Shown here: positions 15,404 through 37,260 of the stretch, in pieces
How the letters are laid out: each line of letters starts with the position of its first letter
Position numbering within the stretch: the first letter of the stretch is position 1
From: Sphingomonadales bacterium
GTDB taxonomy: Bacteria; Pseudomonadota; Alphaproteobacteria; Sphingomonadales; Sphingomonadaceae
DNA: 63,360 nt
NCBI GenBank assembly: GCA_013297725.1
Contig: JAAFIB010000008.1
Location: 1 to 63,360 of the forward strand
Direction: 5' to 3'
Notes under the pieces: generated by a model
The model's input: the letters and a program-made list of their open reading frames with translations, nothing else
Database searches by the model: none
Told to the model about the DNA's origin: nothing
Position numbers and translations under genes: made by a program

Positions 15404-16048
15404 ATGATCGTTTACGGCACCCCCGTCTCCCCCTTTGCCCGCAAAGTCCTGTCCTATCTGATCGAGCGGGGCATGGAGCATGAAGTGGTCAGCGTCGGCA
15501 TGGGCGACCCCAACCCCGATTACGCCGCGGTCAGCCCGTTCCGCAAAATGCCCGCGATTAAAGACGGCGATTTCGGCATTTCCGATAGCAGCGCGATCCT
15601 AACCTATTTGGAGGCGAAATATCCCGGCTCTGCGCTAACGCCAGACAGCGCAGAGGATAAAGCCCGCGTCGCCTGGTTCGATGAATTTGCCGACACGATG
15701 CTGACTGCATCGGGCGGCAAGATCTTCTTCAATCGGGTCGTCGCACCAAAGTTTATGAAGCAAGACGGTGATGAAGCCGCCGCGAAAGCAGGCGAAGCGG
15801 AACTGCCAAAGCTATATGCCTATTTGGAAAGCGTGATGGACGGTTCCGGCTATCTGGCCGGCGGAAAGTTCACCATCGCCGACATCGCGGTCGCCGCCGC
15901 CTTGGGCAATCTGCGCCCCATGGGTTTCGGCCCGAATGCCGCCGAATATCCAAAGACCGCCGCCTATCTAGACACCATCAACGCCCGCCCCAGCATCGCC
16001 GGACCATATGGCCATTTCGAAAAAATCTATGCACGGGTGGTAGGATAA
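15404..16048 (+). CDS. Glutathione S-transferase family protein
   Basis: A 214-residue GST with an N-terminal thioredoxin-like domain (MIVYGTPVSPFARKVLSYL, ISDSSAILTYLEAKYPG giving the glutathione-binding Glu/Asp-Ser pair) and an all-helical C-terminal domain (YLAGGKFTIADIAVAAAL). The reaction and substrate cannot be specified. It is the last core gene before the accessory region; the first 79-bp repeat begins 3 bp after its stop codon. Confidence 0.9.
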   Translation: MIVYGTPVSPFARKVLSYLIERGMEHEVVSVGMGDPNPDYAAVSPFRKMPAIKDGDFGISDSSAILTYLEAKYPGSALTPDSAEDKARVAWFDEFADTMLTASGGKIFFNRVVAPKFMKQDGDEAAAKAGEAELPKLYAYLESVMDGSGYLAGGKFTIADIAVAAALGNLRPMGFGPNAAEYPKTAAYLDTINARPSIAGPYGHFEKIYARVVG

Positions 16049-18828: not shown

Positions 18829-19386
18829 ATGGCGACTGAACAAGAGGCTGGTCGAGGCAAAGTTATCCGTAATACGGTTAACGGACAGCCGCAGATTGCC
18901 AAAAGGCGCAATCGCGCGATTACCATGAGTGAAAAGCAGGCTTTTCTGGACCACCTAGCGAAATGTTGCAATGTTACGGCATCAGCGATGGCCACGGGGC
19001 GTAGCTATGACGGTTTCAGCCGCATCCGCATACGCGACCCCGAATTTGCAGCGCAATGGCAGGATGCGATAGAGGCCGGACATGCCACGATCGAGGCTTT
19101 GATGCTGGAACGCGCACATATGGCGTTACAGGCAGAACAGCCGACCGTTTCCAGCGGCAAGGAAGAAGAGGGGTCAAGCGAGGCTAGCGCACAAGGAAGC
19201 CAGTTTGCGCTGTCGATGAATGCAGATCAAATCTTGCGCCTGCTTGTCCTTCATCGCAGCACTGTGAACGGTGCGAAAAGGGGTGGTCCGTCAAAGCGTG
19301 CAGCCGCAAGTGAAGACGTTGCATGCGCTGCGATCCTTAAAAAACTGGACGTCCTAAGAAAGCGGATCGATGGCAAAAAGGCGTAA
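18829..19386 (+). CDS. GTA g1-like protein, putative small terminase
   Basis: A 185-residue protein at the g1 position. ATG 18829 (MATEQEAGRGKVIRN) follows GAAAGGA with an 8-base spacing; a longer frame to 18673 runs through the hairpin and repeat and is rejected. The N-terminal half has a helix-turn-helix look (MSEKQAFLDHLAKCCNVTAS, GFSRIRIRDPEFAAQWQDAI), fitting DNA recognition by a small terminase. It overlaps the terminase gene by 17 bp. Confidence 0.72.
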   Translation: MATEQEAGRGKVIRNTVNGQPQIAKRRNRAITMSEKQAFLDHLAKCCNVTASAMATGRSYDGFSRIRIRDPEFAAQWQDAIEAGHATIEALMLERAHMALQAEQPTVSSGKEEEGSSEASAQGSQFALSMNADQILRLLVLHRSTVNGAKRGGPSKRAAASEDVACAAILKKLDVLRKRIDGKKA

Positions 19387-20725
19387 CGCCGACTTATTTT
19401 CGCTACTGCGCGAAGTGGCGCAGTTGCCTAAACGCGAACGGCAGATACTGGTCAATTCGCTGTCGGCACCGGTGCGCCGGGCGATAGACGAACATTGGAG
19501 ACGCTGGGCGCATAATGGGCAATATCCCGACGATAGCGACTGGCGCGTGTGGTTGATTTCGGCAGGACGCGGCTTTGGAAAGACACGCGCTGGCGCAGAA
19601 TGGGTCAACGCCTTAGCGCGCGGAAACGGGAATTTGCGCATCGCTCTGGTCGGTGCAACGCAGGACGAAGTCCGGCGGATCATGATCGAGGGCGAAAGCG
19701 GCATTCTTGCGACAGCGCGCAGCGGTGAAACGCTCGACTGGCAATCCAGCAAAGGGGAACTGCGTTTCCCGAGCGGTAGCATAGCGTTGGCCTATGGTGC
19801 CGCAGCACCAGAAAGTCTGCGCGGGCCACAGCATCATTATGCGTGGTGCGATGAACTCGCCAAATGGACGAATGGTAAGCTTTGCTGGGACAACTTGCTG
19901 TTGGGAATGCGGCTGCAAAAGGATGCGAAAGTCCTAGTCACAACGACTCCGCAAACATCGGCGTTGTTGCGGTCGATAAAGGCCATGCCGGGTTGCATCA
20001 CTGTTACTGGCCCCACCCACGATAATGGCAACCTGCCCGGTGATTACGTCGCCTATATGGAATCGCTATATGGTGGGACGCGATTGGGGCGTCAGGAATT
20101 GCTCGGCGAGTTACTTGAGGATGTCGAAGATGCGCTTTGGACACGCGAGCTGATTGAAGCGTGCCGTGTCGCCCTTCGCCCTTCGACAAGCTCAGGACCT
20201 CAGGGTGATCGGTTTTTCAAAAGGATCGTCATTGGCGTCGACCCACCCGCCAGCAAAAACGGCGATGCTTGCGGGATTGTGGCGATTGGCAAAGGCGCAG
20301 ATGGCAAAGCCTATGTACTAGCCGACCACAGCGTAAAGGGCCGATCGCCAGAGGGATGGGCGCGCGCGGTTGCAGCAGCGGCCGAGGCATGGGGCGCCGA
20401 CCGCGTGATCGCAGAGGTCAATCAGGGCGGCGATATGGTCGAAAGCACATTGCGCGCGGCGGACGTGGGGATGCCGGTGAAAAAGGTTCACGCATCACGC
20501 GGCAAAGTGGCGCGGGCTGAACCAGTCGCGGCATTATATCAGTCGGGCAAAGCGTTTCATGCAGGGGCGTTTCCCGCGCTTGAGGATGAACTCTGCGGCC
20601 TGATCTCTGGCGGCGGTTATGAAGGCCCGGGCCGCTCCCCCGATCGCGCCGATGCGCTGGTCTGGGCGATGACAGAATTGATGCTGGGCAAACGCGGTGT
20701 GGAGCCGCGGGTCCGCCAGCTTTAG
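19370..20725 (+). CDS. Phage-type terminase large subunit (GTA g2)
   Basis: A 451-residue packaging motor. The ATPase domain has Walker A SAGRGFGKTRAGAEW (about 64-78) and Walker B YAWCDELAKW with Asp161 and Glu162. The nuclease domain starts at VIGVDPPAS with the metal-binding Asp291, and ends GRSPDRADALVWAM. Residues 270-280 (RPSTSSGPQGD) are encoded by a copy of a dispersed repeat inserted between the two domains. Both domains otherwise look intact. Confidence 0.93.
   Translation: MAKRRNADLFSLLREVAQLPKRERQILVNSLSAPVRRAIDEHWRRWAHNGQYPDDSDWRVWLISAGRGFGKTRAGAEWVNALARGNGNLRIALVGATQDEVRRIMIEGESGILATARSGETLDWQSSKGELRFPSGSIALAYGAAAPESLRGPQHHYAWCDELAKWTNGKLCWDNLLLGMRLQKDAKVLVTTTPQTSALLRSIKAMPGCITVTGPTHDNGNLPGDYVAYMESLYGGTRLGRQELLGELLEDVEDALWTRELIEACRVALRPSTSSGPQGDRFFKRIVIGVDPPASKNGDACGIVAIGKGADGKAYVLADHSVKGRSPEGWARAVAAAAEAWGADRVIAEVNQGGDMVESTLRAADVGMPVKKVHASRGKVARAEPVAALYQSGKAFHAGAFPALEDELCGLISGGGYEGPGRSPDRADALVWAMTELMLGKRGVEPRVRQL
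20178..20208. repeat. Dispersed repeat half-element inside terminase gene
   Basis: CCTTCGACAAGCTCAGGACC and the following CAGGGTGAT match the intergenic repeat family seen at 27791-27860. In frame it adds residues RPSTSSGPQGD to the interdomain linker of the terminase without breaking the frame. Confidence 0.75.
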
Positions 20726-20743
20726 ACTTTACAGGAGTATGTG

Positions 20744-21862
20744 ATGAAAATCTTCGGCTGGAAATCGGCCGGGCGTGCGGACGTGCGCCCGGGCAAAACG
20801 CATGTGCCACTGACGCGCCCATTTGGTGTGCGCAGCTTTGGCAGTGGCGGAATTGGCGAGTGGCCCAAATCCTATGAAGCGCAGATGCGTGAAGGGTATT
20901 TGCACAATGCGATTGCGCAGCGTGCGGTGGCATTGGTCGCAGAGGGCGTTGCGTCTGCGCCGCTGGTTGCATCTGACGATGCAGCGCTGGCGTTGGTCAC
21001 TGCGACCAGCGGCGGGCAAAGCTTGCTGGAGACGCTGGCGACGCAAGTTTTGCTGCACGGCAATGGCTATGTGCAGCTGCTGACTGCGCCCGTTGGATCA
21101 TTGTGCGAGCTCTATGCGCTGCGCCCTGAACGGGTGTCGATTGAGGCCGATATGCGCGGCTGGCCCGCCGCGTTTCGCTATAAAGCGGGCGAGGCGGTCA
21201 CGCGGCTGGGTGCGAACGAGGTGATCCACATCCGCACACATCATCCGCTCGATGACCATTATGGGTTGGGCTGTTTAGGCGCAGCATCGGGCGCGATTGC
21301 GATCCATAATGCCTCGGCACAATGGAACAAGGCGCTGCTCGATAATGCGGCGCGGCCAAGTGGCGCGTTGGTGCATGATGCGGCGGAGGCGCTGTCGGGC
21401 GACCAGTTTGACCGGTTAAAGGAGGAGCTGGCGGCGCAATTTTCTGGCCAAGCCAATGCCGGACGGCCGATGTTATTGGAAGGCGGGCTGAAATGGCAGG
21501 CGCTATCTTTGTCGCCGGCGGACATGGATTTTGCCGGATTAAAAGCAGCGGCAGCGCGCGAGATTGCGCTCGCCTTTGGCATACCGCCGATGCTGCTCGG
21601 CCTGCCCGGCGATGCGACCTATGCGAATTACCGCGAAGCGAACAAGTCGCTGTGGCGGCAATCGATCTTGCCATTGGCGACAAAGATACTGGACGCGCTG
21701 GCGGAGGGGCTACACCCCTGGTTTGCGGATTTAACGTTGAAGGTCGATGCCAATCAGGTCAGCGCACTGAGCGAGGATCGCGAACGATTATGGGCGCAAG
21801 TAAGCGCCGCGGATTTCCTTTCCCCCGAAGAGAAACGGACGATGTTGGGACTATCACTATGA
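20744..21862 (+). CDS. Phage portal protein, HK97 family (GTA g3)
   Basis: A 372-residue portal protein forming the dodecameric channel at the capsid vertex. Typical segments are QRAVALVAEGVASAPLV, LETLATQVLLHGNGYVQLL, NEVIHIRTHHPLDDHYGLG and AFGIPPMLLGLPGDATYANY. ATG 20744 follows AGGAG with 6 bases spacing; a GTG sits one codon earlier. The stop overlaps the next start (ATGA). Length is normal for GTA portals. Confidence 0.92.
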   Translation: MKIFGWKSAGRADVRPGKTHVPLTRPFGVRSFGSGGIGEWPKSYEAQMREGYLHNAIAQRAVALVAEGVASAPLVASDDAALALVTATSGGQSLLETLATQVLLHGNGYVQLLTAPVGSLCELYALRPERVSIEADMRGWPAAFRYKAGEAVTRLGANEVIHIRTHHPLDDHYGLGCLGAASGAIAIHNASAQWNKALLDNAARPSGALVHDAAEALSGDQFDRLKEELAAQFSGQANAGRPMLLEGGLKWQALSLSPADMDFAGLKAAAAREIALAFGIPPMLLGLPGDATYANYREANKSLWRQSILPLATKILDALAEGLHPWFADLTLKVDANQVSALSEDRERLWAQVSAADFLSPEEKRTMLGLSL

Positions 21863-22119
21863 CACGCGATACAGAGCTGAAAATACTATTGGAGCAAGCG
21901 TCACAGTCTGGTGCCCAGCGTGCGCTTGCGCATCTTGGGCTTTCGGATGAAAGCGCGGCTAAGGATATGGCGGATCTGCGCGAGCTGCTCTCTGCGTGGC
22001 GCGATGCGAAGAAATCGGCGCGTAAGGCGGTGATCGAATGGCTGGTGCGCGGAGTGCTGGCGCTGCTGGTGATCGGCCTCGCCCTGAAATTAGGGCTGAC
22101 AGGTTTGGTGCTGAAATGA
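21859..22119 (+). CDS. GTA g3.5-like small membrane protein (DUF6127 type)
   Basis: An 86-residue protein between portal and protease, with ATGA overlaps on both sides. The first 60 residues are helical and charged (LKILLEQASQSGAQRALAHL), and the C terminus is one hydrophobic segment (LVRGVLALLVIGLALKLGL). It matches the position and layout of the small g3.5 gene in RcGTA-like clusters. Function unknown. Confidence 0.75.
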   Translation: MTRDTELKILLEQASQSGAQRALAHLGLSDESAAKDMADLRELLSAWRDAKKSARKAVIEWLVRGVLALLVIGLALKLGLTGLVLK

Positions 22120-22475
22120 GATTTGCAGGCTATGCCGCCATTTTTGATCAGCCGGACCGGGGCGGAGATATTGTCCGTAAAGGCGCGTTCGCGCGCGCTG
22201 CAAAGGCCGGGCTGCCGCTGTTGTGGCAACATGATCGCACGCAGCGGATCGGCTTTATCGAACAACTGCACGAAGACGAACGGGGCTTGCGCGTTATTGC
22301 GCATATGGATGCCGATGCGCCGCCGGTTATGGACGGGGCGGGGCTGTCGTTCGGTTATCGCGTGCGCGGAAGCAGGCAGGGAACATATCGCGAACTGACC
22401 GATGTTGATTTGATCGAAATCAGCGTCGTCAACCACCCCATGCAACCGCTTGCGCGGGTGTTGGCGGTGGATTGA
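22116..22475 (+). CDS. HK97-type prohead protease (GTA g4)
   Basis: A 119-residue protease that cleaves the capsid scaffold region. It shows the family pattern FAGYAAIFDQPDRGGDIV, then LLWQHDRTQRIG (catalytic His), GLSFGYRV (catalytic Ser) and VDLIEISVVNHPM (third catalytic residue). It is shorter than many HK97 proteases but covers the whole catalytic core. It starts within the g3.5 stop codon and is the last overlapping gene before the foreign-looking gene at 22522. Confidence 0.88.
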   Translation: MRFAGYAAIFDQPDRGGDIVRKGAFARAAKAGLPLLWQHDRTQRIGFIEQLHEDERGLRVIAHMDADAPPVMDGAGLSFGYRVRGSRQGTYRELTDVDLIEISVVNHPMQPLARVLAVD

Positions 22476-22521: not shown

Positions 22522-23046
22522 ATGCGAACTATCAAAGTGTTAAGTGGGATTTTAACGGTGGTGCTGGCAACAGCAACTGCAAATGCCAAGCCAATGACCT
22601 ATGGCTGTGACACAGCAGCAGACCGCTATTCTGCCCTTGAGCAGCAAGTTGACCTGAAATCATTCACATTATCAGCGCAAATTCAGCCTAACGAATTTCG
22701 TAAAGGGCAATACGCTCCCCTTGCGCAAATCTATCTTGAAAGCGCGGATGAGAAGAACCGTTGGTCGGTGAAACTGATAGCGCCCGATCATAAAGCAAAG
22801 GCTGCGTTGGTTCTGTTATCGCGAATTGAAAATGGAAAGGAGGATGAGCCCTTTCCGATTGGCGCAGTCAAACTCGGAGAGAAAATTGCTATTTCGTTGA
22901 AGATTACGGACGGCAAAAAAATCAATTTCAAGATTGGCGACCTGGATGGAAGTCCTGAAATGGATCTGGGTGAAACGGCAAAACTGGCCGTGATCTGTTC
23001 GACGGGAGATTTCGTATTTTCCGATCTGGAGTGGTCTGAAAAATAG
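22522..23046 (+). CDS. Exported hypothetical protein inserted in the head operon
   Basis: A 174-residue protein with signal peptide (MRTIKVLSGILTVVLATATA, cleavage near ANA). The mature part is beta-rich (FTLSAQIQPNEFRKGQYAPL, KIAISLKITDGKKINFKIGD) with cysteines in YGCDTAA and AVICSTGDF. It resembles no GTA structural protein and is not expected between protease and capsid. It has its own GGAGAGAAG ribosome-binding site and an intrinsic terminator. It looks like a host-type cargo gene; function unknown. Confidence 0.7.
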   Translation: MRTIKVLSGILTVVLATATANAKPMTYGCDTAADRYSALEQQVDLKSFTLSAQIQPNEFRKGQYAPLAQIYLESADEKNRWSVKLIAPDHKAKAALVLLSRIENGKEDEPFPIGAVKLGEKIAISLKITDGKKINFKIGDLDGSPEMDLGETAKLAVICSTGDFVFSDLEWSEK

Positions 23047-23100: not shown

Positions 23101-23113
23101 TATGGAGAATAAC

Positions 23114-24187
23114 ATGGATTATGAAGTGAAAGCCGACCCGTTGCAGATGGCATTTGATGCTGTTGGGAATACAGATGATACAGTCGTGCGTCCGCGTTTG
23201 TCGGGGGCAGCGGCGATTGCTGATCCGGCGCGCAATGCCTTTGTTGATGGATTTTTGCGTAAAGGCCGCGATGTTGAGCTGAAAAGTTTTGCCGGCAATG
23301 TGGCGGCGGATGGCGGCTATGCGATCCCGCGCGAAATTGACGAGGTTATTGATGCGACCTTGCGCAATATCTCCCCCATTCGCGCAGTGGCCAATGTGGT
23401 GCGCGTTGGTTCAGCTGGCTATCGCAAGCTTGTGACCACCAATGGCGTAGCGTCCGGTTGGGCATCCGAAGTTGCGGCCCGGCCAACCACCAACACGCCG
23501 GTGTTCAACGAAATCGTCCCCAGCTTTGGCGAGCTTTATGCCAATCCTGCAGCGACACAGGCGATGCTGGATGATGCACAGTTCGATGTAGAGGCTTGGT
23601 TGGCCGACGAGATTGCGACGCAGTTTGCGAAATCTGAAGGAACCGCATTTGTTAATGGTGATGGTTTTGATAAACCAAAAGGGTTCCTCACTTATGCTAC
23701 TGCATCGACCAGTGATACCACGCGTGCTTTTGGCCAGTTGCAATATGTCGCATCGGGTGCGGCAGCGGCGTTGCCTGCGACTAATCCGGAAAACAAGCTG
23801 CTCGATCTGGTGCATTCGCTGCGTGCGCCCTATCGCCAGGGTGCGGTGTGGGTGATGAATTCGGCAACGCTTGCTACTATCCGCAAGTTCAAGACAGCGG
23901 ACGGCGCGTTCATCTGGATGCCGGGCCTTGTGACCGGACAGCCCGATACGTTGCTGGGTTATCCAGTGATCGAAAGCGAGGATATGCCCGATATCGCAGC
24001 GAGCAGCCTGCCCGTTGCCTTTGGCAATTTTAAGGCGGGGTATCTGATCGCTGAACGCAGCGAGACGAACATCCTGCGCGATCCGTATTCGAACAAGCCC
24101 TATGTGAATTTCTACGCTACAAAGCGGCTTGGCGGGGCGGTGTCGAATTCTGAAGCGATCAAGTTGCTGAAGATCGCTGTAAGCTAA
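23114..24187 (+). CDS. Major capsid protein, HK97 family (GTA g5)
   Basis: A 357-residue major capsid protein. ATG 23114 follows GGAG; an in-frame ATG at 23102 is too close to the terminator. HK97-fold segments include GGYAIPREIDEVIDATLRNI, SPIRAVANVVRVGSAGYRKL, ANPAATQAMLDDAQFDVEAW, AFVNGDGFDKPKGFLTY and SEDMPDIAASSLPVAFGNF. The first 50 residues would be the scaffold (delta) domain removed by the g4 protease. It appears intact. Confidence 0.93.
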   Translation: MDYEVKADPLQMAFDAVGNTDDTVVRPRLSGAAAIADPARNAFVDGFLRKGRDVELKSFAGNVAADGGYAIPREIDEVIDATLRNISPIRAVANVVRVGSAGYRKLVTTNGVASGWASEVAARPTTNTPVFNEIVPSFGELYANPAATQAMLDDAQFDVEAWLADEIATQFAKSEGTAFVNGDGFDKPKGFLTYATASTSDTTRAFGQLQYVASGAAAALPATNPENKLLDLVHSLRAPYRQGAVWVMNSATLATIRKFKTADGAFIWMPGLVTGQPDTLLGYPVIESEDMPDIAASSLPVAFGNFKAGYLIAERSETNILRDPYSNKPYVNFYATKRLGGAVSNSEAIKLLKIAVS

Positions 24188-27777: not shown

Positions 27778-27872
27778 AAAAAACCGTTAGCCCTGAGCCT
27801 GTCGAAGGGCGTCTATCAGGATAGTGCCATGCGGTGAGACGTGCTTCGACAGGCTCAGCACTAACGGTTTTT
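27778..27872. repeat. Inverted repeat of the CCCTGAGCCTGTCGAAGG family, terminator-like
   Basis: AAAACCGTTAGCCCTGAGCC...GTCGAAG at the left pairs with CTTCGACAGGCTCAGCACTA...CGGTTTTT at the right around a 30-base centre, with A-run and T-run at the two ends. It can terminate transcription in both directions: g8 on plus, the small gene on minus. The same sequence family lies inside the terminase gene. Confidence 0.8.
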
Positions 27873-27886
27873 GCCGTGTGCCGGCA

Positions 27887-28147
27887 TCAAGCCATCGGAT
27901 AATCCGACAGCCGCCGCTTTCGCTTTTTCCGGGGTGGCTCTTTGCACTCTGGCAACAGCACCGCTGGATCACGGCTTTTCGGAGCGGCATCGGGCAAACG
28001 GCCCTCAGTCTTTGGCGCGTCTTGCGGCACCGGCGTTGTCGACACCGGCGCAACCATGACTTGCGTAGCGCAAACATTTTGCGCCGCAGGTGTCGCAACA
28101 AAACTCATAATCGCGCTCGCCCCAGCGAGCATTTGAACCATCAACAT
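27887..28147 (-). CDS. Small exported or membrane protein antisense to the GTA operon
   Basis: An 86-residue minus-strand gene. ATG 28147 is preceded by a strong GGGAGAGGAGG ribosome-binding site. The start is hydrophobic (MLMVQMLAGASAIMSFVAT), then Pro-rich (VAPVSTTPVPQDAPKTEG) and very basic near the end (KEPPRKKRKRRLSDYPMA). It is the only gene of the cluster on the opposite strand. I do not recognise it. The frame could extend to 28189. Confidence 0.5.
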   Translation of the reverse strand: MLMVQMLAGASAIMSFVATPAAQNVCATQVMVAPVSTTPVPQDAPKTEGRLPDAAPKSRDPAVLLPECKEPPRKKRKRRLSDYPMA

Positions 28148-28194
28148 GGCGACCTCCTCTCCCAATGAGTCGTCCAATGCAGGAGACAATAATC

Positions 28195-28901: not shown

Positions 28902-29086
28902 CCTTTGCAGACAGCGCCGTCCAACTGGCCGGGCAAACCGCTGTGTTGCTGGGATGGCGGCCCGATGATTTTTGGGATGCGACCCCGGCGGAACTGGCCG
29001 CGATCCTTGCAGCGATGACGCCCGCTGGCGACGCGGCTGACGCAACCACCTTAACCGAACTAATGGAGCTATTCCCCGATGGATGA
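28898..29086 (+). CDS. Phage tail assembly chaperone (GTA g10.1)
   Basis: A 62-residue protein starting MTFADSAVQLAGQTAVLLGW and RPDDFWDATPAELAAIL. The GW-x-PD-x-FW-x-AT-x-EL pattern is diagnostic of the GTA tail assembly chaperone. It overlaps g10 by 4 and g11 by 8 bases. Confidence 0.87.
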   Translation: MTFADSAVQLAGQTAVLLGWRPDDFWDATPAELAAILAAMTPAGDAADATTLTELMELFPDG

Positions 29087-29678
29087 GGAAATCGAACGGC
29101 TGGTCGTCTCTGTCCGCGCCGACACACAAGGCTTTGCGCGTGACGTGGCAACGATGCGTGCCGAAATGGATGGGCCATTTGCAGCCGGAATGGACCGTGC
29201 CGGGCGAGCGTTAGAAAACAGCCTTGTCCGCGCAATCCAGACCGGCAAATTCGGCTTTGAAGATTTGCGGCGTGTGGCGTTATCGGTGTTATCCGAAATC
29301 GCCGGTGCTGCGATCCGTGGTGGTTTAGACTCCATCCTTGGCAGTGCTGGTGGCGGCGGTGGCAGCGGACAGGGCGGGTTGCTGAACGCGATTGGCTCTG
29401 CGCTTGGCAGCCTGTTTGGTGCGCCAGGGCGGGCAACTGGCGGCCCGGTATCGCCGGGACGCGCATACCGCGTTGGTGAAAACGGCCCCGAGCTGTTTGT
29501 GCCGACCAGTGCAGGGCGGGTCGAGGCGAACTCTGCGGGACGCAGCGGCGCAGCGCAACTTAGCGTAACGATTAATGTGTCCGACAATGGCCGGGGCAGC
29601 GCGCCCGATGCGCTGCAACGATCCAGCCGCCAAGTGGCGCGCGCGGTGCGGCAAGCACTGATGCGGGCGGAGGATTAG
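29079..29678 (+). CDS. Short tail tape measure protein (GTA g11)
   Basis: A 199-residue tape measure protein: helical N terminus (IERLVVSVRADTQGFARDVA), GRALENSLVRAIQTGKFGFE, a Gly-rich hinge (GSAGGGGGSGQGGL) and FGAPGRATGGPVSPGRAYRV with ENGPELFVP. The short length fits a short GTA tail, as tape length sets tail length (RcGTA has about 220 residues). Stop is TAG, showing amber acts as a normal stop here. Confidence 0.87.
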   Translation: MDEEIERLVVSVRADTQGFARDVATMRAEMDGPFAAGMDRAGRALENSLVRAIQTGKFGFEDLRRVALSVLSEIAGAAIRGGLDSILGSAGGGGGSGQGGLLNAIGSALGSLFGAPGRATGGPVSPGRAYRVGENGPELFVPTSAGRVEANSAGRSGAAQLSVTINVSDNGRGSAPDALQRSSRQVARAVRQALMRAED

Positions 29679-29681
29679 CTC

Positions 29682-32027
29682 ATGCCCTATTGGCTTTGTG
29701 ATGAGCGACGCGATCAGGAATCCGCGCCGCTGATGCGGTTCGATCCGCGTTTTTGGACGCTCAACTTTCCGCGCCCGATGATGGCGTCAGTGGTGTCCAC
29801 TGGCCCTGAATCGCTGCGCGTCGATGCGGTGTTTTATGGCAGCAACGATCTGGCCGGATTGATTTGGGAAAGCGAGGATGTCTGGGATCATCCGCTGCTC
29901 GCCTATGAAACCAACCGCGATTACCGGCGGCTGACAATGCGGTTTCGCTGGCGCTCGTCGGGGATCATGCCGCTGGATGCGGTTAATGGACCGACGCTGA
30001 CAATCGAAGGGCGCGACGCCGCGGGGCAACCAAAGAACTGGTATGTGCGGCTGTGGAACTATGCGGTCGGCAGCTCAGAGGACGCCATCATCACGCTGCC
30101 TTTCAGTGCGCTTGATGGTGGCTTTTTATTACCCGGTGAGGCTGATCCGGTTTTCGCTGGCGATATCGACCGGCTGTTTATTTCTTTGGTCCCACCGGGC
30201 TACACAGGCGCAGCTGGCAGCTTTGCATCGGGCGTTGAGGGCTGGACCGAACTATCCGAAATCCGCTGTGACGGCGAAGGCGTAATGCTGAATACCGGCA
30301 ACGTCATGGTGCCCGAACATAGCCTGAAAATGGCAACCGGCTATGACGATGCGTATAACCAGACGCCCGCGCGTATCTTGCGGCAACTTCGCGCGCTGGG
30401 CTATCGCGACACGATCAACCATTATGTCGGGATGAGCCATTATTTCCGGCTACAGCCATCGGGCGGCGGGCTTTATGCCAGCCTGGCAGGAGGCGCGCTA
30501 AATACGCCGTGCCGCGCATGGCATCTGGATTTTGCCAATCGTGCAAAGGACGCAGGCTATGACCTGATCCTGTCTTTAAGCTATGAGCTGTTCGACGCGC
30601 ATTGCTGGAACGATTGGAAACAGCGGGCGGAAAATGGCGATGCGGCGCTGACCGGCTGGGTGCCGCCGTCGACCTTGCTGTCGCCCGCGCATGCTGGCGC
30701 GATGGCCTATTTGCAAGCCGTTGGCCGCGCCTTTGCGTTCATTCAAAAAACAGCGGCGCTGCCTGTGAAATTTCAGGTGGGCGAGCCTTGGTGGTGGATA
30801 ACCTCTGACCACCGGATCTGTCTGTATGATGCATCGGCAACCGCTGCGTTTGGGGCATTGTCGGTGTCTGTTCCCGATATTCGCGGAACCAAAACTGCCA
30901 CGCAAAATGCGATGCTGGATCGGGCGGGTCAGCTGCTCGCTGCATCGACCGCCGCTTTAGTCGCAGCGGTTAAGGATGAAGCGGGTTCGGCGCCGTTTGA
31001 AAGCCATTTGCTGGTGTACCTGCCAACGGTCCTCGACCCGCTGGTCCCAGAGGCAAAGCGCGCCAATGTGCCGCTTGATTGGGCTTCGCCTGCATTCGAT
31101 GTGCTGCAGCTTGAGGATTACGACTGGGTCACAAGCGGCAATCATGGCGCAACCAATCGCGCGATGCCGTTGATGCTGTCGCGGCTTGGCTATCCCATAA
31201 CAGAGCAACATTATTTTGCCGGGTTCGTGCTGCGCCCAGAAGACAAAGCGCAATGGCGCGAGATCGCCTTTGCCGCACAGGCCGCCTGTGAACGCGGGAC
31301 GGCGCAAACCTATGTCTGGGCGCTGCCTCAAGTCGCGCGTGACGGTTTTACCTGGTTCCAAATTGGCCCAAAAACTGAATACGAAAGTGAGGACGATGTG
31401 CAACCTTTTGATGATGTGACTTTCCCGATTGCGATTGGGCAAGAGGCAGAAGTAACCGCTGAGTTTTCGACCAATGTTGTGACCATGCTGTCGGGGCAGG
31501 AGAGGCGCAACACCGATTGGGCCGATGCCCGATTGTCCTATGATGTCGCGCCGGGAGTGCGTTCAGAGGCAGAGCTTGCAACCTTGATTGCGTTTTTTCG
31601 GGCGCGGCGCGGGGCAGCGATTGCGTTTCGTTTTGCGGATCCTTTTGATGATAGTTCAAACAGCGCAACGGGCGTGCCAACGGCTTTGGATCAGGTGATC
31701 GGCAGCGGTGACGGTGTGACCACCAACTTTGCGTTGATTAAGTCCTATGGCGCAGCGGCCTCTGCACAGGTTCGCCGGATTACACGTCCGCGCGCCGGAT
31801 CGGTTGTGGTGGCAGTGAATGGGGTCGTTGCAACCGGCTGGACACTTGGCGCGATGGGACGGATCAATTTTCAGACTGCGCCTGTTATCGGCGCACAGAT
31901 TACAGCTGGCTTCCGCTTCGATGTGCCAGTGCGCTTTGCCGAGGACCGGTTGAACGCAAGCCGCGCGACCTTTGCCGCGGGTAGTTTCGCCAGCGTGCCT
32001 TTGATTGAAGTGAAGGACGCGGCATGA
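29682..32027 (+). CDS. DUF2460 distal tail protein with large N-terminal TIM-barrel-like extension (GTA g12 variant)
   Basis: A 781-residue protein. Residues about 580-781 are the DUF2460/TIGR02217 domain typical of g12 (about 210 residues in RcGTA): TAEFSTNVVTMLSGQERRNT, FFRARRGAAIAFRFADP, RFDVPVRFAEDRLN. The N-terminal 575 residues are extra; they contain a glycosidase-like alpha/beta region (WHLDFANRAKDAGYDLILSL, LPVKFQVGEPWWWITSDHRI, FDVLQLEDYDWVTSG) resembling the TIM-barrel domains of phage tail sheath or tip proteins. The joint is in one intact frame. It probably forms the tail tip. Confidence 0.8.
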   Translation: MPYWLCDERRDQESAPLMRFDPRFWTLNFPRPMMASVVSTGPESLRVDAVFYGSNDLAGLIWESEDVWDHPLLAYETNRDYRRLTMRFRWRSSGIMPLDAVNGPTLTIEGRDAAGQPKNWYVRLWNYAVGSSEDAIITLPFSALDGGFLLPGEADPVFAGDIDRLFISLVPPGYTGAAGSFASGVEGWTELSEIRCDGEGVMLNTGNVMVPEHSLKMATGYDDAYNQTPARILRQLRALGYRDTINHYVGMSHYFRLQPSGGGLYASLAGGALNTPCRAWHLDFANRAKDAGYDLILSLSYELFDAHCWNDWKQRAENGDAALTGWVPPSTLLSPAHAGAMAYLQAVGRAFAFIQKTAALPVKFQVGEPWWWITSDHRICLYDASATAAFGALSVSVPDIRGTKTATQNAMLDRAGQLLAASTAALVAAVKDEAGSAPFESHLLVYLPTVLDPLVPEAKRANVPLDWASPAFDVLQLEDYDWVTSGNHGATNRAMPLMLSRLGYPITEQHYFAGFVLRPEDKAQWREIAFAAQAACERGTAQTYVWALPQVARDGFTWFQIGPKTEYESEDDVQPFDDVTFPIAIGQEAEVTAEFSTNVVTMLSGQERRNTDWADARLSYDVAPGVRSEAELATLIAFFRARRGAAIAFRFADPFDDSSNSATGVPTALDQVIGSGDGVTTNFALIKSYGAAASAQVRRITRPRAGSVVVAVNGVVATGWTLGAMGRINFQTAPVIGAQITAGFRFDVPVRFAEDRLNASRATFAAGSFASVPLIEVKDAA

Positions 32028-32851
32028 GCGAGGCTTGGCTGCAAGGGCCGCTGACCAGTGCCGCTTATGGCTGGCGATTGGAGCGGCGTGACGGTGTGAC
32101 GCTTGGCTTTACCTCGCATGACAGCGATGTCGAAATGGATGGATTGGTCCTGCGGGCCAGCCCCGGGATGATGCCCAGTTCGATTACGCAAAGCATTGGC
32201 ATGGAGGTCGACGGGCTGGATGTGCGCGGCGCCTTGACCGCCGACGCCATCCGCGCCGATGATTTGGGTGCAGGGCGATGGGATGCGGCGCGGCTTTCGA
32301 TTTTCCTGTTTGATTGGACTGATCCATCGGCGGATGTGCGCATGCTTGCGGTTGGAGAGCTGGGCGCGATTTCGCATAGCAGCAGCGAATTTGAGGCAGA
32401 GTTTAAGGGGCCAGCAGCAAAGCTGGACATAGCAGTTGCGCCCTATACATCGCCCGGTTGTCGCGCCGATTTCTGTGATGCTGATTGCGGATTGAATGCT
32501 GCACAGTTCACGCATCAGGCAAAGATTGCGTCAGTCATTGGCAGCGTAATAGGTTTAGCCGCGCCGCTGCCGGGGGGGCACGCGAATTTTGCTTTCGGAA
32601 AAATGCGGTGGCTTGATGGCGCAAATTGCAGCCTTTGGTCCGATATTCTGTCGGCTAACGCGTCCAGTATTGAACTGATGGTGCCGCCACCCTTTCTAGC
32701 GCCGCCCGGTGGCAGAGTGGAGCTGATCGAGGGGTGCGACAAAACCATCGCGACCTGTGGAACGCGGTTCTTTAATGCGATCAATTTTCGCGGTGAACCC
32801 TATTTGCCCGGCAATGACATTTTGACCCGATATCCCGGCGCCGGGTCGTGA
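32024..32851 (+). CDS. DUF2163 baseplate hub protein (GTA g13)
   Basis: A 275-residue protein of the DUF2163/TIGR02218 family: YGWRLERRDGVTLGFTSHDS and DVEMDGLVLRASPGM at the start, and the cysteine-rich SPGCRADFCDADCGLNAAQF near residue 145, which in RcGTA gp13 binds a metal cluster. C-terminal segment VELIEGCDKTIATCGTRFFN is also conserved. It overlaps g12 and g14 by ATGA/GTGA. Confidence 0.88.
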   Translation: MSEAWLQGPLTSAAYGWRLERRDGVTLGFTSHDSDVEMDGLVLRASPGMMPSSITQSIGMEVDGLDVRGALTADAIRADDLGAGRWDAARLSIFLFDWTDPSADVRMLAVGELGAISHSSSEFEAEFKGPAAKLDIAVAPYTSPGCRADFCDADCGLNAAQFTHQAKIASVIGSVIGLAAPLPGGHANFAFGKMRWLDGANCSLWSDILSANASSIELMVPPPFLAPPGGRVELIEGCDKTIATCGTRFFNAINFRGEPYLPGNDILTRYPGAGS

Positions 32852-33252
32852 AGCCTAATACAGGTGACGCAATCGCAGCACGGGCTTTGGCTCAAATCGG
32901 CACTCCATTCCGGTTGCATGGCAGGACGCCGGGCGTGGCTTTGGACTGTGTGGGGTTAGTTGCTCATGCGGTTGGTGCGCGGGATGTGCTTTCAAGTTAC
33001 AGCCTTAAAGGTGTGAAATTGGAGTTCATATTATCCTATATGGATATTGTTGGATTGCCTCCTACCATCCTTTCCACTCGTTTTCTCGACGGTGACATTG
33101 CGATCGTGGCTTGTTCGCCCCGGCAGTTCCACCTGATGATTCGTGCTGATGACGGCTGGGTCCACAGCCATGCGGGCCTTCGCAAAGTCGTTCATACGCC
33201 GGGCGCATCGCCTTGGCCGATAGTCGCCATCCGGCGCATGATTGGAGATTGA
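32848..33252 (+). CDS. NlpC/P60 family cell-wall peptidase (GTA g14)
   Basis: A 134-residue NlpC/P60 peptidase starting at GTG 32848. The catalytic Cys34 lies in GVALDCVGLVAHAVG and a histidine in DDGWVHSHAGLRKVV. In RcGTA this enzyme opens a hole in the peptidoglycan during DNA entry. The usual length is about 140-150, so it appears complete. It stops two bases before the g15 start. Confidence 0.87.
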   Translation: MKPNTGDAIAARALAQIGTPFRLHGRTPGVALDCVGLVAHAVGARDVLSSYSLKGVKLEFILSYMDIVGLPPTILSTRFLDGDIAIVACSPRQFHLMIRADDGWVHSHAGLRKVVHTPGASPWPIVAIRRMIGD

Positions 33253-33253
33253 A

Positions 33254-35434
33254 ATGGCGACCGTAATTTTGTCCGCAGTCGGCACGTATCTGGGCGGACC
33301 CATCGGCAGCGCTATTGGCGCAGCAATCGGCCAACAGATTGATCGCGCAATTATCGGCGGCGGCAAGGCGCGTGAAGGCCCGCGGATCAAAGAGTTGGAT
33401 ATCCAAACATCCAGCTATGGCACGCAAGTTCCCGCAATTTTTGGTGCAATGCGGGTCGCGGGGACTGTGATCTGGTCCACCGACTTGATCGAAACGCGCA
33501 AGAAAAGCGGCGGCGGCAAAGGCCGTCCATCCGCGATCAATTACAGCTATTCGGCCAGCTTTGCTGTCGCCTTGTCCAGTCGCCCGGTTGCTCGGATAGG
33601 GCGGATTTAGGCAGACGGAAATCTGCTACGCGGCGCAGCGGGTGATTTCAAAAGCGAAGTCACATTTCGGTTTCACAATGGCTATGGCGATCAGCAGCTG
33701 GATCCGATTTTATCGTCAGCTGAGGCTTCGGGCCAATGCCCCGCGCATCGCGGAATCGCTTATGCGATGTTTGAAGATTTCCAGCTTGCCGATTTTGGCA
33801 ATCGCATACCGTCGTTGACGTTTGAGCTTTTTGAACGCGAGACGCCTGTGCCGCTTATGGACATCGCCTCGGCAACATCGGCCGGCGCGATAACGGGGCA
33901 AAGCGCCGCGACTTTGACCGGATTTGCAGCGCAGGGCAGTGATTGCCGCGCTGCATTGGAGCCATTGGTTGCGGTTCTGCCTGTTTTGATCCGCCCGCTG
34001 GGTGATAAAATGACGGTGTCTGATTGGAATGCGGCAACACCAACCAACATTTTGACTGACCCAGCGATATCAGACGGCAAAAGCCGTATCAGCCGCCCAA
34101 GCCGATCGCGAGAAGCCAATAGCCGTGCGCCATCGTCACTCTCCATCCGGCATTACGAGGCAGAGCGTGATTTTCAAACAGGGGTGCAGACGAGCAGGAC
34201 GATGGGCAACGCCCGAACCAAGACGCAGATTGACTTGCCAGCTGTGCTTGAAGCCTCAGCTGCGCGTCATTTGGCGGAATTGCAAATATTGCAGCAATGG
34301 CGCGGGCTGAATGTCTTTACGGCATCGTTGCCAGTGAGTGCCACGGTTATTGAGGCAGGAAACCGCCTTTCGGAAACGAGCGGCGCACAGGCATTGCGGA
34401 TCGTCGAGGTGGAACATCAGCGCGGCACAACCCGCGTTATCGCACGCGAATGGGGCGAGGGCGCTAGTGTCAATCCGGCCGCTGACCCTGGCCGCAGCCT
34501 GCCGGCCACTGACCTGACTATAGGTGAAACACGGCTTTTACTCGCCGATTTACCTGCATTTGGAACTGACGATCCGGGCCGCGCGGTGCTGGTTGCCGCA
34601 GCAGCGGGAACAGGTGCGGGATGGCGGCGGGCGGCGCTGTCTTTGATGGATGGGGATCGCGACGTTGCACTTGGCGGAACAAAAGGCGTTGCTACTATGG
34701 GACATCTGCAGGCGGAATTGCCACCGCATACCGCCATGTTGGAAGATCGAATGAACCAACCGGTTATCCGCCTGCTCAATGCTGGAATGACCTTACCAAC
34801 AGGGTCAGGCGACCCGAAAAGCTTTGATGCGCCGCTGTTATGGCTTGGCAGTGAAATCATCCGCTATGGCAATGCAGAGCAGATTGGCGCGCAGGATTAT
34901 AGGTTGAGCGGATTGCTGCGGGGTTGTTTTGGCACACAGAGCAACGGCGTTCATGCCGCGCAATCCGATGTGTTCCTGATCGAACCGGACAGCCTGTTGC
35001 AGCTCGATTCGATGCCAACACCGGTTGATTCATCGTTCTTGGTTGAAGCGCAAGGAATTGCTGATGCCATTCCGGTCCAACGGCACATTACAGTGACAGG
35101 AAACGCCATTCGGCCGCCAAGGCCCGTTCATGGAATGGCAGAGCGTTTTGAAAACGGTGGCATCTTGCTCCAATGGAAAAGGCGCGACCGATTGCCGCAT
35201 ATCTGGGCAGACGGTGCAGATGTTCCCGATAGCGAGGGTACCACTGAATACGCAGTGGAGCTTTATGTCGGCGGGGCGCGGATTGCGACATGGCGTTGCA
35301 CCGCTTCATCCCTGCTTTTGACGGCTGCTGAAACCGCGTCGTTATCCATCGGATCAGGTGCAGTTCTTCAGTTTAACATTATCCAGCTGGGCCGATTTGC
35401 ACGATCGTTGCCGCTGGTTCTGACGCTCATCTGA
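33254..35434 (+). pseudogene. GTA g15 megatron (tail tip / host specificity) with in-frame amber stop
   Basis: The frame opens at ATG 33254 (MATVILSAVGTYLGGPIGSA) and continues to the stop at 35432-35434, 726 codons, except for TAG at 33608-33610 (codon 119). Around it the frame reads VARIGRI-stop-ADGNLLRGAAGDF; related g15 proteins have tryptophan here (RIWADG), so TGG to TAG explains it. Downstream the coding pattern is intact (AHRGIAYAMFEDFQLADFGN, LSGLLRGCFGTQSNG). The usual protein is about 1300 residues in RcGTA; this one lacks the internal TIM-barrel domain. Confidence 0.88.
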
Positions 35435-35480: not shown

Positions 35481-35933
35481 ATGCCAGAAGATTCAACAAG
35501 GCGGCATTCTTTGCCTAATCTGTATGTCGGCCAATCGCAAAAAGAGCTGACACATAACGAGGCGCTGGCGCGCATCGACGCGTTGTTGCACCCGGTGGTT
35601 GAGGCCAAAGCGACAACGCCGATCACAGGTTTGACCGATACAAGCGACGGCCTGTGTTGGCTGATTACAGGTGCGGCGACCGGGCTATGGACAGGGCGAT
35701 CCGGGCAGATCGCGCGTTGGTCAGGGGGCAGCTGGCGTTATATCGCGCCGGTTGCGGGTATGACGTTGTGGCTAAATACATCTGGAAAAAGACTTTTTTA
35801 CATTGCCGGCGAATGGGCTGAGCCGTCAGCAATTGGCAACCCGACTAATGGCGCAGCGATAGATATCGAAGCGCGCACTGCTATTAATGCGATTCTCGAT
35901 CATCTGCGGCTGATTTCCAGCATTCCATCATAA
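35481..35933 (+). CDS. DUF2793 family protein at the end of the GTA cluster
   Basis: A 150-residue protein: LPNLYVGQSQKELTHNEALA and RIDALLHPVVEAKA are the DUF2793 signature, followed by LCWLITGAATGLWTGRSGQI and GSWRYIAPVAGMTLWL. DUF2793 proteins are often found next to GTA tail genes and are thought to be fibre-related. ATG 35481 follows AAGGAAAC. The last cluster gene. Confidence 0.85.
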   Translation: MPEDSTRRHSLPNLYVGQSQKELTHNEALARIDALLHPVVEAKATTPITGLTDTSDGLCWLITGAATGLWTGRSGQIARWSGGSWRYIAPVAGMTLWLNTSGKRLFYIAGEWAEPSAIGNPTNGAAIDIEARTAINAILDHLRLISSIPS

Positions 35934-36135: not shown

Positions 36136-37260
36136 ATGCGTAAGTTAGCTTTAGGCCTAGCACTCGCTTCGACTGCTCTGGCTTCACCTTCTATGGCCCG
36201 CGATGGTTCATGGTATGTTGGTGTTGACGGCGGTGCGATGCTTGTAGAGGACCTTGATATCGATATTGGCACCATAAATGGTGCGGGTACAATTAATACC
36301 GATACAGGTTATGATTTTGGCGCCGTTGTTGGGTATGACTTCGGTGGGTTCCGCTTGGAAGCTGAAACTAGCTATCGTGAAACAGACCTTAAGAGCGTCG
36401 CCACTTCGCTTGGAGGAATTCCTAATGGTGCTGGATCATCGGTAACGAACGGCTTGAAACTAACTGGTGGTGATGCCAACGCACTCAGCTTCATGGTCAA
36501 CGGCATGCTTGATTTCGGCGAAGATGATGGCCTTCAGGGCTTCGTCGGCGGCGGTGTAGGTGTTGCTCGGGTCGATGTGCAGCAAATTTTTGCTGCTCCA
36601 TCATGGCTTGATGATTCGGACACTGGTCTTGCATGGCAAGCGCTTGCAGGCATCCGCGCTCCACTCAGCGATAGCTGGGATGTTGGCTTGAAGTATCGCT
36701 TCTTTAACGCGCCAAAGGTCAATCTGGTTGATCGTCTTGGCCGTGATGTTGAAACACGCTTCCGTTCGCACAGCTTGATGGGTAGCTTGGTATACAACTT
36801 TGGCGGTGCAGAGCCTGTTCAAGTCGTAGAGCCTCCAGTGGCGCCACCACCACCTGTGATTGCACCTCCACCACCACGTCCTGTGCCACCACCGCCACCG
36901 CGCGTAACGTGCAACACTGGTCCGTACATTGTCTTCTTTGATTGGGACAAATCGAATCTGCTGCCAGCAGCAACTTCGGTGCTTGATAACGCTGTATCGC
37001 AATATGCAAACTGCGGTAACGCGCGCGTAATGCTTGCCGGTCACGCCGATAAATCGGGTTCGAACACCTACAACGTAGGCCTGTCGCAACGTCGCAACAC
37101 GGCTGTTCGTGGATATCTTGAAAGCAAGGGTATTAACGGCAGCGCGATTTCGACCGAAGCGTTCGGTGAAACGGCTCCTCTGGTTCAGACCGCCGATGGC
37201 GTTCGTGAGCCTCAGAACCGCCGCGTTGAAGTATCTTATGGCCCAGGTTCGGGTAACTAA
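36136..37260 (+). CDS. OmpA-family outer membrane protein
   Basis: A 374-residue outer membrane protein. The signal peptide (MRKLALGLALASTALASPSM) is followed by an eight-stranded beta-barrel domain (GSWYVGVDGGAMLV to GSLVYNFGG), a proline-rich linker (PPVAPPPPVIAPPPPRPVPP) and a C-terminal OmpA domain binding peptidoglycan (YIVFFDWDKSNLLPAA, LAGHADKSGSNTYNVGLSQR, QNRRVEVSYGPG). A structural porin-like anchor. AAAAGGGGAACG lies before ATG 36136, and an intrinsic terminator follows. Confidence 0.94.
   Translation: MRKLALGLALASTALASPSMARDGSWYVGVDGGAMLVEDLDIDIGTINGAGTINTDTGYDFGAVVGYDFGGFRLEAETSYRETDLKSVATSLGGIPNGAGSSVTNGLKLTGGDANALSFMVNGMLDFGEDDGLQGFVGGGVGVARVDVQQIFAAPSWLDDSDTGLAWQALAGIRAPLSDSWDVGLKYRFFNAPKVNLVDRLGRDVETRFRSHSLMGSLVYNFGGAEPVQVVEPPVAPPPPVIAPPPPRPVPPPPPRVTCNTGPYIVFFDWDKSNLLPAATSVLDNAVSQYANCGNARVMLAGHADKSGSNTYNVGLSQRRNTAVRGYLESKGINGSAISTEAFGETAPLVQTADGVREPQNRRVEVSYGPGSGN

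What the first reader, a model, noticed from the sequence alone, without database searches (positions are those of the whole stretch)
33608..33610. In-frame amber codon in the tail-tip gene g15 where tryptophan is expected
The g15 frame runs from 33254 to 35434 without frameshift and is broken only by TAG at codon 119, in the context GRI-stop-ADGNLLRG. From family knowledge this position is tryptophan (RIWADG), so a single TGG to TAG change accounts for it. Both sides remain under normal coding pattern, which suggests a recent loss or a sequencing error. g11 and the terminase gene also end in TAG, so recoding is unlikely. If real, the strain should make no complete GTA tails, or only rare readthrough product.
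Basis: partly seen in the sequence, partly recalled or inferred. Interest (0 to 1): 0.72.

Follow-up and report, generated by a model that had tools for sequence, protein, structure and literature searches.

The report
Stop codon breaks GTA tail-tip gene
A Sphingorhabdus-like bacterium carries a gene-transfer-agent cluster that looks intact except that one large tail-tip gene is cut short by a single stop codon, most likely a recent ordinary loss (or a base error in the assembly) and not a new decoding trick.

Summary
Frame 33254-35434 (727 codons) is the RcGTA megatron homologue g15; its only internal stop is TAG at 33608-33610, codon 119. The column is tryptophan in 20 of 20 comparable genus loci, 112 of 112 long proteins and 80 of 80 named loci. 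Recoding is unlikely: no CUA tRNA among 40, RF1 present, TAG ends 20 of 106 long frames, no unusual fold after it, stop not shared. The protein has evolved no faster than intact relatives and keeps 41 of 41 invariant columns besides the lesion, so the stop is very young or an assembly error; reads would decide. Loss of this element is ordinary here: two genus genomes have other single lesions in the same cluster (G009 terminase TAG and g12 frameshift; G008 capsid and late g15 TAG), and three keep only deletion remnants. Verdict: most likely a recent nonsense loss of a known kind; low interest.

The parts
33254..33607 (+). g15 (megatron) piece before the stop, codons 1-118: counterpart of the iris/penetration region and the first part of the adhesin-like domain of RcGTA Rcc01698
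33608..33610 (+). in-frame TAG, codon 119; column is tryptophan in every comparable relative examined
33611..35434 (+). g15 piece after the stop, 607 codons and TGA: Phage-tail_3 (PF13550) and Rcc01698_C (PF23666); first in-frame ATG/GTG/TTG after the stop is ATG 33767, with only a weak ribosome site by eye
32848..33252 (+). g14 cell-wall peptidase homologue, full length; keeps the Cys and His shared by all nine aligned sequences (their catalytic role is recalled)
   Evidence: (weak NlpC match)
32024..32851 (+). g13 baseplate hub (TIGR02218), full length
29682..32027 (+). g12 distal tail protein fused behind a non-contractile-tail-sheath N domain and TIM barrel, full length
29079..29678 (+). 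tape-measure (g11) candidate by place and a below-cut-off Pfam match, full length, ends in TAG
23102..24187 (+). major capsid (g5), full length
22038..22475 (+). prohead protease (g4), full length
20741..21862 (+). portal (g3), full length
19370..20725 (+). large terminase (g2), full length, ends in TAG
35481..35933 (+). DUF2793 gene after g15, matched in 11 of 11 genus loci

Best explanation
The window holds the head-tail cluster of an RcGTA-like gene transfer agent in a Sphingorhabdus-like bacterium. A single nonsense change, young on the scale of species divergence, has put a TAG at codon 119 of the megatron gene g15. Translation should end inside the adhesin-like domain and give a 118-residue stub without the central (tail-attaching) and fibre-binding domains. 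Shown: the stop, the conserved tryptophan column, the otherwise full-length cluster, the lack of relaxed evolution, ordinary use of TAG as stop. Inferred: that the stop is in the cell and not only in the assembly, that the stub is inactive, and that the strain makes tail-defective, non-delivering particles while perhaps remaining a recipient.
For: Only one internal stop in 727 codons. Tryptophan in 20/20, 112/112 and 80/80 comparable sequences (the sets overlap). Own/sister relative-rate ratio 0.75-1.02, mean 0.88, over 20 near relatives and 25 outgroups. 41 of 41 invariant columns kept besides the lesion; if neutral since the stop, at most about 1-2.5% substitution. One copy of g15 in the genome. 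The stop falls at RcGTA residue 134 (counted from the alignment), in the adhesin-like domain 47-229 (passages of PMC7296036). Lesions elsewhere in the same cluster in the genus: G009 (single-contig genome) has a TAG in the terminase at a column that is tryptophan in 19 of 24 aligned loci, and a frameshift in g12; G008 has a TAG in the capsid at a column that is tryptophan in this genome and in all nine cluster loci aligned, and one at codon 715 of 725 of g15. G011, G029 and G013 keep only remnants. G278 of another genus has TAG at codon 436 of g15. dprA and comEC matches present.
Against: No sign of decay elsewhere in this gene or cluster, which an assembly error would explain just as well. 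No reads and no second strain of this species: the nearest full-length relative is 73% identical over the searched part. The lesions in G008 and G009 could be assembly errors too.
Confidence: 0.66

Rival explanations
1. The stop is a consensus error, or a minority or mixed-strain base, in a 148-contig draft; the cell's g15 is intact.
For: The rest of the gene and cluster look fully constrained; one base is involved; the assembly is fragmented.
Against: Nonsense-type errors look rare in this assembly: in 303 kb no other clear interrupted gene among the eight candidate rows read (weak scan, lower rows not read).
Confidence: 0.27
2. The TAG is read through at low rate, and the small amount of full-length megatron suffices because few copies are needed per particle.
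For: g12-g15 proteins are present in 1 to 6 copies per RcGTA particle (passage of PMC9765227); coding constraint continues after the stop. The five internal stops that I placed in GTA genes of this family (this genome; G008 twice; G009; G278) are all TAG, three of them at tryptophan columns.
Against: No relative shares this stop (0 of 20, 0 of 112, 0 of 80), and the others lie in other genes or places and at other residues as well. TAG is the expected stop for 46-58% of single-step nonsense changes in these genes and tryptophan the source of 13-30% of TAGs in this cluster, so five of five TAG, noticed after the fact, is weak. No CUA tRNA among 40 tRNA genes (Ile-GAT and Ala-TGC are missing from the list, so it is not complete). 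RF1 present. TAG ends 20 of 106 long frames. No unusual fold after the stop (z -0.66).
Confidence: 0.04
3. The gene now works as two proteins, an N-terminal stub and a C-terminal product restarted at ATG 33767.
For: Both pieces are conserved; an ATG lies 52 codons after the stop.
Against: The restarted product would lack codons 120-171, which hold many conserved columns, and the ribosome site is weak by eye; none of the 20 comparable genus loci is split there.
Confidence: 0.03

Closest known systems
RcGTA megatron protein Rcc01698 (g15), PDB 6tba/6teh, and roseophage R4C megatron 8gtc
   Same: Same gene place after g14; an intact near relative matches it at residues 13-193 (E 8.8e-36), and the piece after the stop matches NF048004 positions 783-1287, below that model's cut-off; tryptophan kept in RcGTA (residue 134).
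   Different: 727 codons against 1304 residues: the RcGTA peripheral domain appears to be missing here, and the listed relatives are of similar length; this copy also carries a stop.
Pseudogenised RcGTA-like clusters in alphaproteobacteria (stated in PMC10883770, passages read)
   Same: A structural GTA gene is disabled in a recognisable cluster; those authors suggest that such lineages may be recently emerged cheaters.
   Different: Here one nonsense lesion with the rest full length; I did not see their list of cases.
Stop-codon readthrough or amber recoding
   Same: Coding pattern continues on both sides of a TAG.
   Different: Stop not conserved, no suppressor tRNA found, RF1 present, TAG used as a normal stop.

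Membership tests
RcGTA-like head-tail cluster | Gene order terminase, portal, protease, capsid, tail tube, tape measure, g12, g13, g14, g15 | tested here: met
   (tape measure by place and a below-cut-off match)
RcGTA-like head-tail cluster | Same chromosomal place in related species | tested here: met
   The gene 15404-16048 before and the OmpA-like gene 36136-37260 after the cluster are both matched in 5 of 11 fetched stretches (L071, L072, L073, L076, L079); the others match only the latter, and some stretches may end before the former
RcGTA-like head-tail cluster | Packages random host DNA in small particles | not testable with these tools
   needs particles
Pseudogene | Disabling change at a constrained site | tested here: met
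Pseudogene | Relaxed evolution or further lesions after the first | tested here: not met
   relative-rate ratio mean 0.88, g15 within the spread of other cluster genes, 41 of 41 invariant columns kept; fits a very young lesion or an error
Amber recoding or readthrough | Stop conserved among relatives | tested here: not met
   0 of 20, 0 of 112, 0 of 80
Amber recoding or readthrough | Suppressor tRNA with anticodon CUA, or loss of RF1 | tested here: not met
   none among 40 tRNA genes (two common tRNAs missing from the draft, so not absolute); RF1 over its cut-off, a second release-factor match below it
Amber recoding or readthrough | Stimulating structure after the stop | tested here: not met
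   90 nt after the stop, z -0.66, 60 of 200 shuffles as stable

The most novel reading that the evidence does not exclude
In this genus GTA loss runs in steps: single-base lesions in different structural genes (g15 here, terminase and g12 in G009, capsid in G008) come first, giving lysing but non-delivering producers, and deletion down to the 3' end of g15 follows; or, less likely, such TAGs are tolerated by low natural readthrough because only a few megatron copies are needed per particle.
Probability: 0.15. Interest if true: 0.45.

Novelty: new member of a known kind. Interest (0 to 1): 0.22.

Why it matters
If real, it is a young single-lesion loss of GTA tail function with the rest of the cluster full length, and with G009, G008 and the deletion remnants in G011, G029 and G013 it gives one genus in which early and late steps of GTA decay can be compared. 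It changes no view of how GTAs or stop codons work.

Tried and rejected
Recoding and suppression: judged unlikely from the tRNA list, RF1, TAG use, lack of conservation and fold. Frameshift in this gene: none. A second g15 copy: none found in the genome. dN/dS: not run. First genome-contig scan: no relative. PADLOC on the stub: nothing. A tRNA-like pattern in the window: nothing. Stops flagged inside g12 in ten listed rows proved to lie at the end of the match in all ten, so the tool's flag can include a terminal stop; the g15 stops of this genome and G278 were checked to be internal. The idea of a shared amber device, prompted by five of five placed internal stops being TAG, was weighed and set low. 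The TAG flagged in the G011 remnant was not placed. Against my reading: the own lineage is faster than its sisters in terminase, protease and capsid (ratios 1.44-1.79), and g14 and the first g15 piece are slightly above 1 against one of two sisters.

Papers: PMC7296036, PMC9836097, PMC9765227, PMC6821227 and PMC10883770 were read as found passages only; the rest only in search listings. No title or abstract start in the listings is about a megatron nonsense mutation, which is not proof that none is in print. Between the first and this filing I added; the odds of the main readings are unchanged, the novel reading went from 0.12 to 0.15.

Full report
What is there. The frame from ATG 33254 to TGA 35434 has 727 codons and one internal stop, TAG at 33608-33610, codon 119. 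The piece after the stop matches Phage-tail_3 and Rcc01698_C and the NCBIfam model GTA_megatron at positions 783-1287, with 166 bits against a cut-off of 800. A near relative with an uninterrupted frame (P0002) matches the RcGTA megatron chain 6tba_8A (E 8.8e-36) and the roseophage megatron 8gtc_M. The whole-genome search found one copy. The window is contig 127 of a 3,017,613-base, 148-contig genome; the best-matching named hosts of this gene type are Sphingorhabdus species.

The column. In the genus search, 26 non-own loci were fetched; 20 span the place and all 20 have tryptophan there. Of the 119 listed homologous proteins other than the window's own (best 120 of 755), 112 were at least 650 aa and all 112 have tryptophan. 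All 80 named loci kept by the scan (80 of 212 relatives) have it too; one of them, L090, has a stop elsewhere. These sets overlap and were picked by similarity, so they are not independent. In RcGTA the aligned residue is 134 (counted), within the adhesin-like domain 47-229; the domains after it attach the baseplate to the tail and bind the fibres (passages of PMC7296036). The stub of 118 residues keeps the iris/penetration region and part of the adhesin-like domain.

Recoding. RF1 is present above its cut-off and a second release-factor match below it. Of 40 tRNA genes, none has anticodon CUA; Ile-GAT and Ala-TGC are not in the list, so the absence is not absolute. TAG ends 20 of 106 open frames of 350 codons or more in 303 kb of this genome, and ends the terminase, a tail-completion gene and the tape-measure gene of this cluster. 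The 90 bases after the stop fold no better than shuffles (z -0.66).

Age of the stop. Own/sister ratios of unique protein changes are 0.75 to 1.02, mean 0.88, for 20 relatives averaged over 25 outgroups. Against two genus genomes the ratios for g15 are 0.96 and 0.71 (after the stop) and 1.16 and 0.72 (before it), within the spread of the other cluster genes tested, 0.47 to 1.79; terminase, protease and capsid are somewhat fast here. At the 41 other columns invariant in the 112 proteins, the own sequence keeps all 41; at columns conserved to 97% it keeps 94 of 95. If the gene had drifted freely since the stop arose, this bounds the neutral change to about 1 to 2.5%. The stop is very young, or not in the cell at all.

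Is it an error? No reads are held. The scan of 303,360 bases is described under the observation check; it suggests that nonsense-type errors are not frequent in this assembly, but it is weak, and one base can be wrong in any draft. I put 0.66 on a real loss and 0.27 on an error or mixed strain.

Surroundings. The window frames for terminase, portal, the DUF6127 gene, protease, capsid, head-tail joining genes, tail genes, the g12 fusion, g13, g14 and the DUF2793 gene align to genus loci without a break in the window's own frame. Nine of 11 fetched stretches reach the terminase-to-g12 part at least in some genes. g14 keeps the shared Cys and His. Five of 28 frames compared had no match at E 1e-3: three before the cluster, one likely spurious (27824-28168) and 22522-23046, an extra gene.

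Lesions in relatives. In the family survey, 227 of 298 genomes match the g15 model; of the 150 rows listed, 2 have an internal stop: this genome and G278, where TAG is at codon 436 of a frame otherwise open to codon 728. The listed rows are the best matches, so decayed copies are under-counted. In the g12 survey ten listed rows are flagged with a stop, all ten at the end of the match. Within the genus, the capsid is found in 21 of 45 genomes, the g12 fusion in 21 of 45, some part of g15 in 25 of 45 and a terminase in 28 of 45, not all of these need be the GTA one. G009, a single-contig genome, has a TAG in the terminase at a column that is tryptophan in 19 of 24 aligned loci (its near relative G008 has tryptophan) and a frameshift near residue 77 of g12. 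G008, 78% complete, has a TAG in a capsid piece at the end of a contig, at a column that is tryptophan in this genome and in the nine loci aligned, and a TAG at codon 715 of 725 of g15, at a column that is serine in 111 of 112. G013 keeps terminase and portal next to about the last 60% of g15; G029 a terminase scrap next to the last part of g15; G011 the last part of g15 between the flanking genes. Loss of the element is thus an ordinary process here, unless the single-base lesions are all assembly errors.

Meaning. Pseudogenised GTA clusters are already reported in several alphaproteobacterial lineages and read as possible recent cheater lineages (passages of PMC10883770). This case fits that kind. 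The host has dprA and comEC matches, so it might still take up GTA DNA; this was not tested. The case is ordinary, tidy and unconfirmed at read level.

Noticed in passing
window 22522-23046 (+): A 174-aa protein with a signal-peptide-like start (by eye) lies between the prohead protease and capsid genes; no match in the 11 genus stretches, but 36 other public proteins resemble it, some from Sphingorhabdus and Sphingopyxis. Possibly a cargo gene.
   Followed up: partly
window 29682-32027 (+): The distal tail protein (DUF2460) is fused behind a non-contractile-tail-sheath N domain and TIM barrel, found in 21 of 45 genus genomes, while the megatron here is too short for the RcGTA peripheral domain; a domain may have moved between tail genes.
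   Followed up: partly
L079, L187 (G009): A single-contig genus genome has a TAG in the GTA terminase and a frameshift near residue 77 of the g12 fusion.
   Followed up: partly
L017, L208 (G008): TAG at codon 715 of 725 of g15 and TAG in a capsid piece at a contig end, in a 78%-complete draft.
   Followed up: partly
L162 (G278:C1:1312134-1314305): An in-frame TAG at codon 436 of the megatron gene in another genus of the family, at a column that is not invariant.
   Followed up: partly
L178, L180, L181: Three genus genomes (G011, G029, G013) hold deletion remnants of the GTA cluster that all keep the 3' part of g15 and the genes after it.
   Followed up: partly
G018:C24: A second, diverged set of tail genes (g12 pieces, one flagged with a TGA, and a 691-codon g15 relative) in a genus genome.
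   Followed up: no
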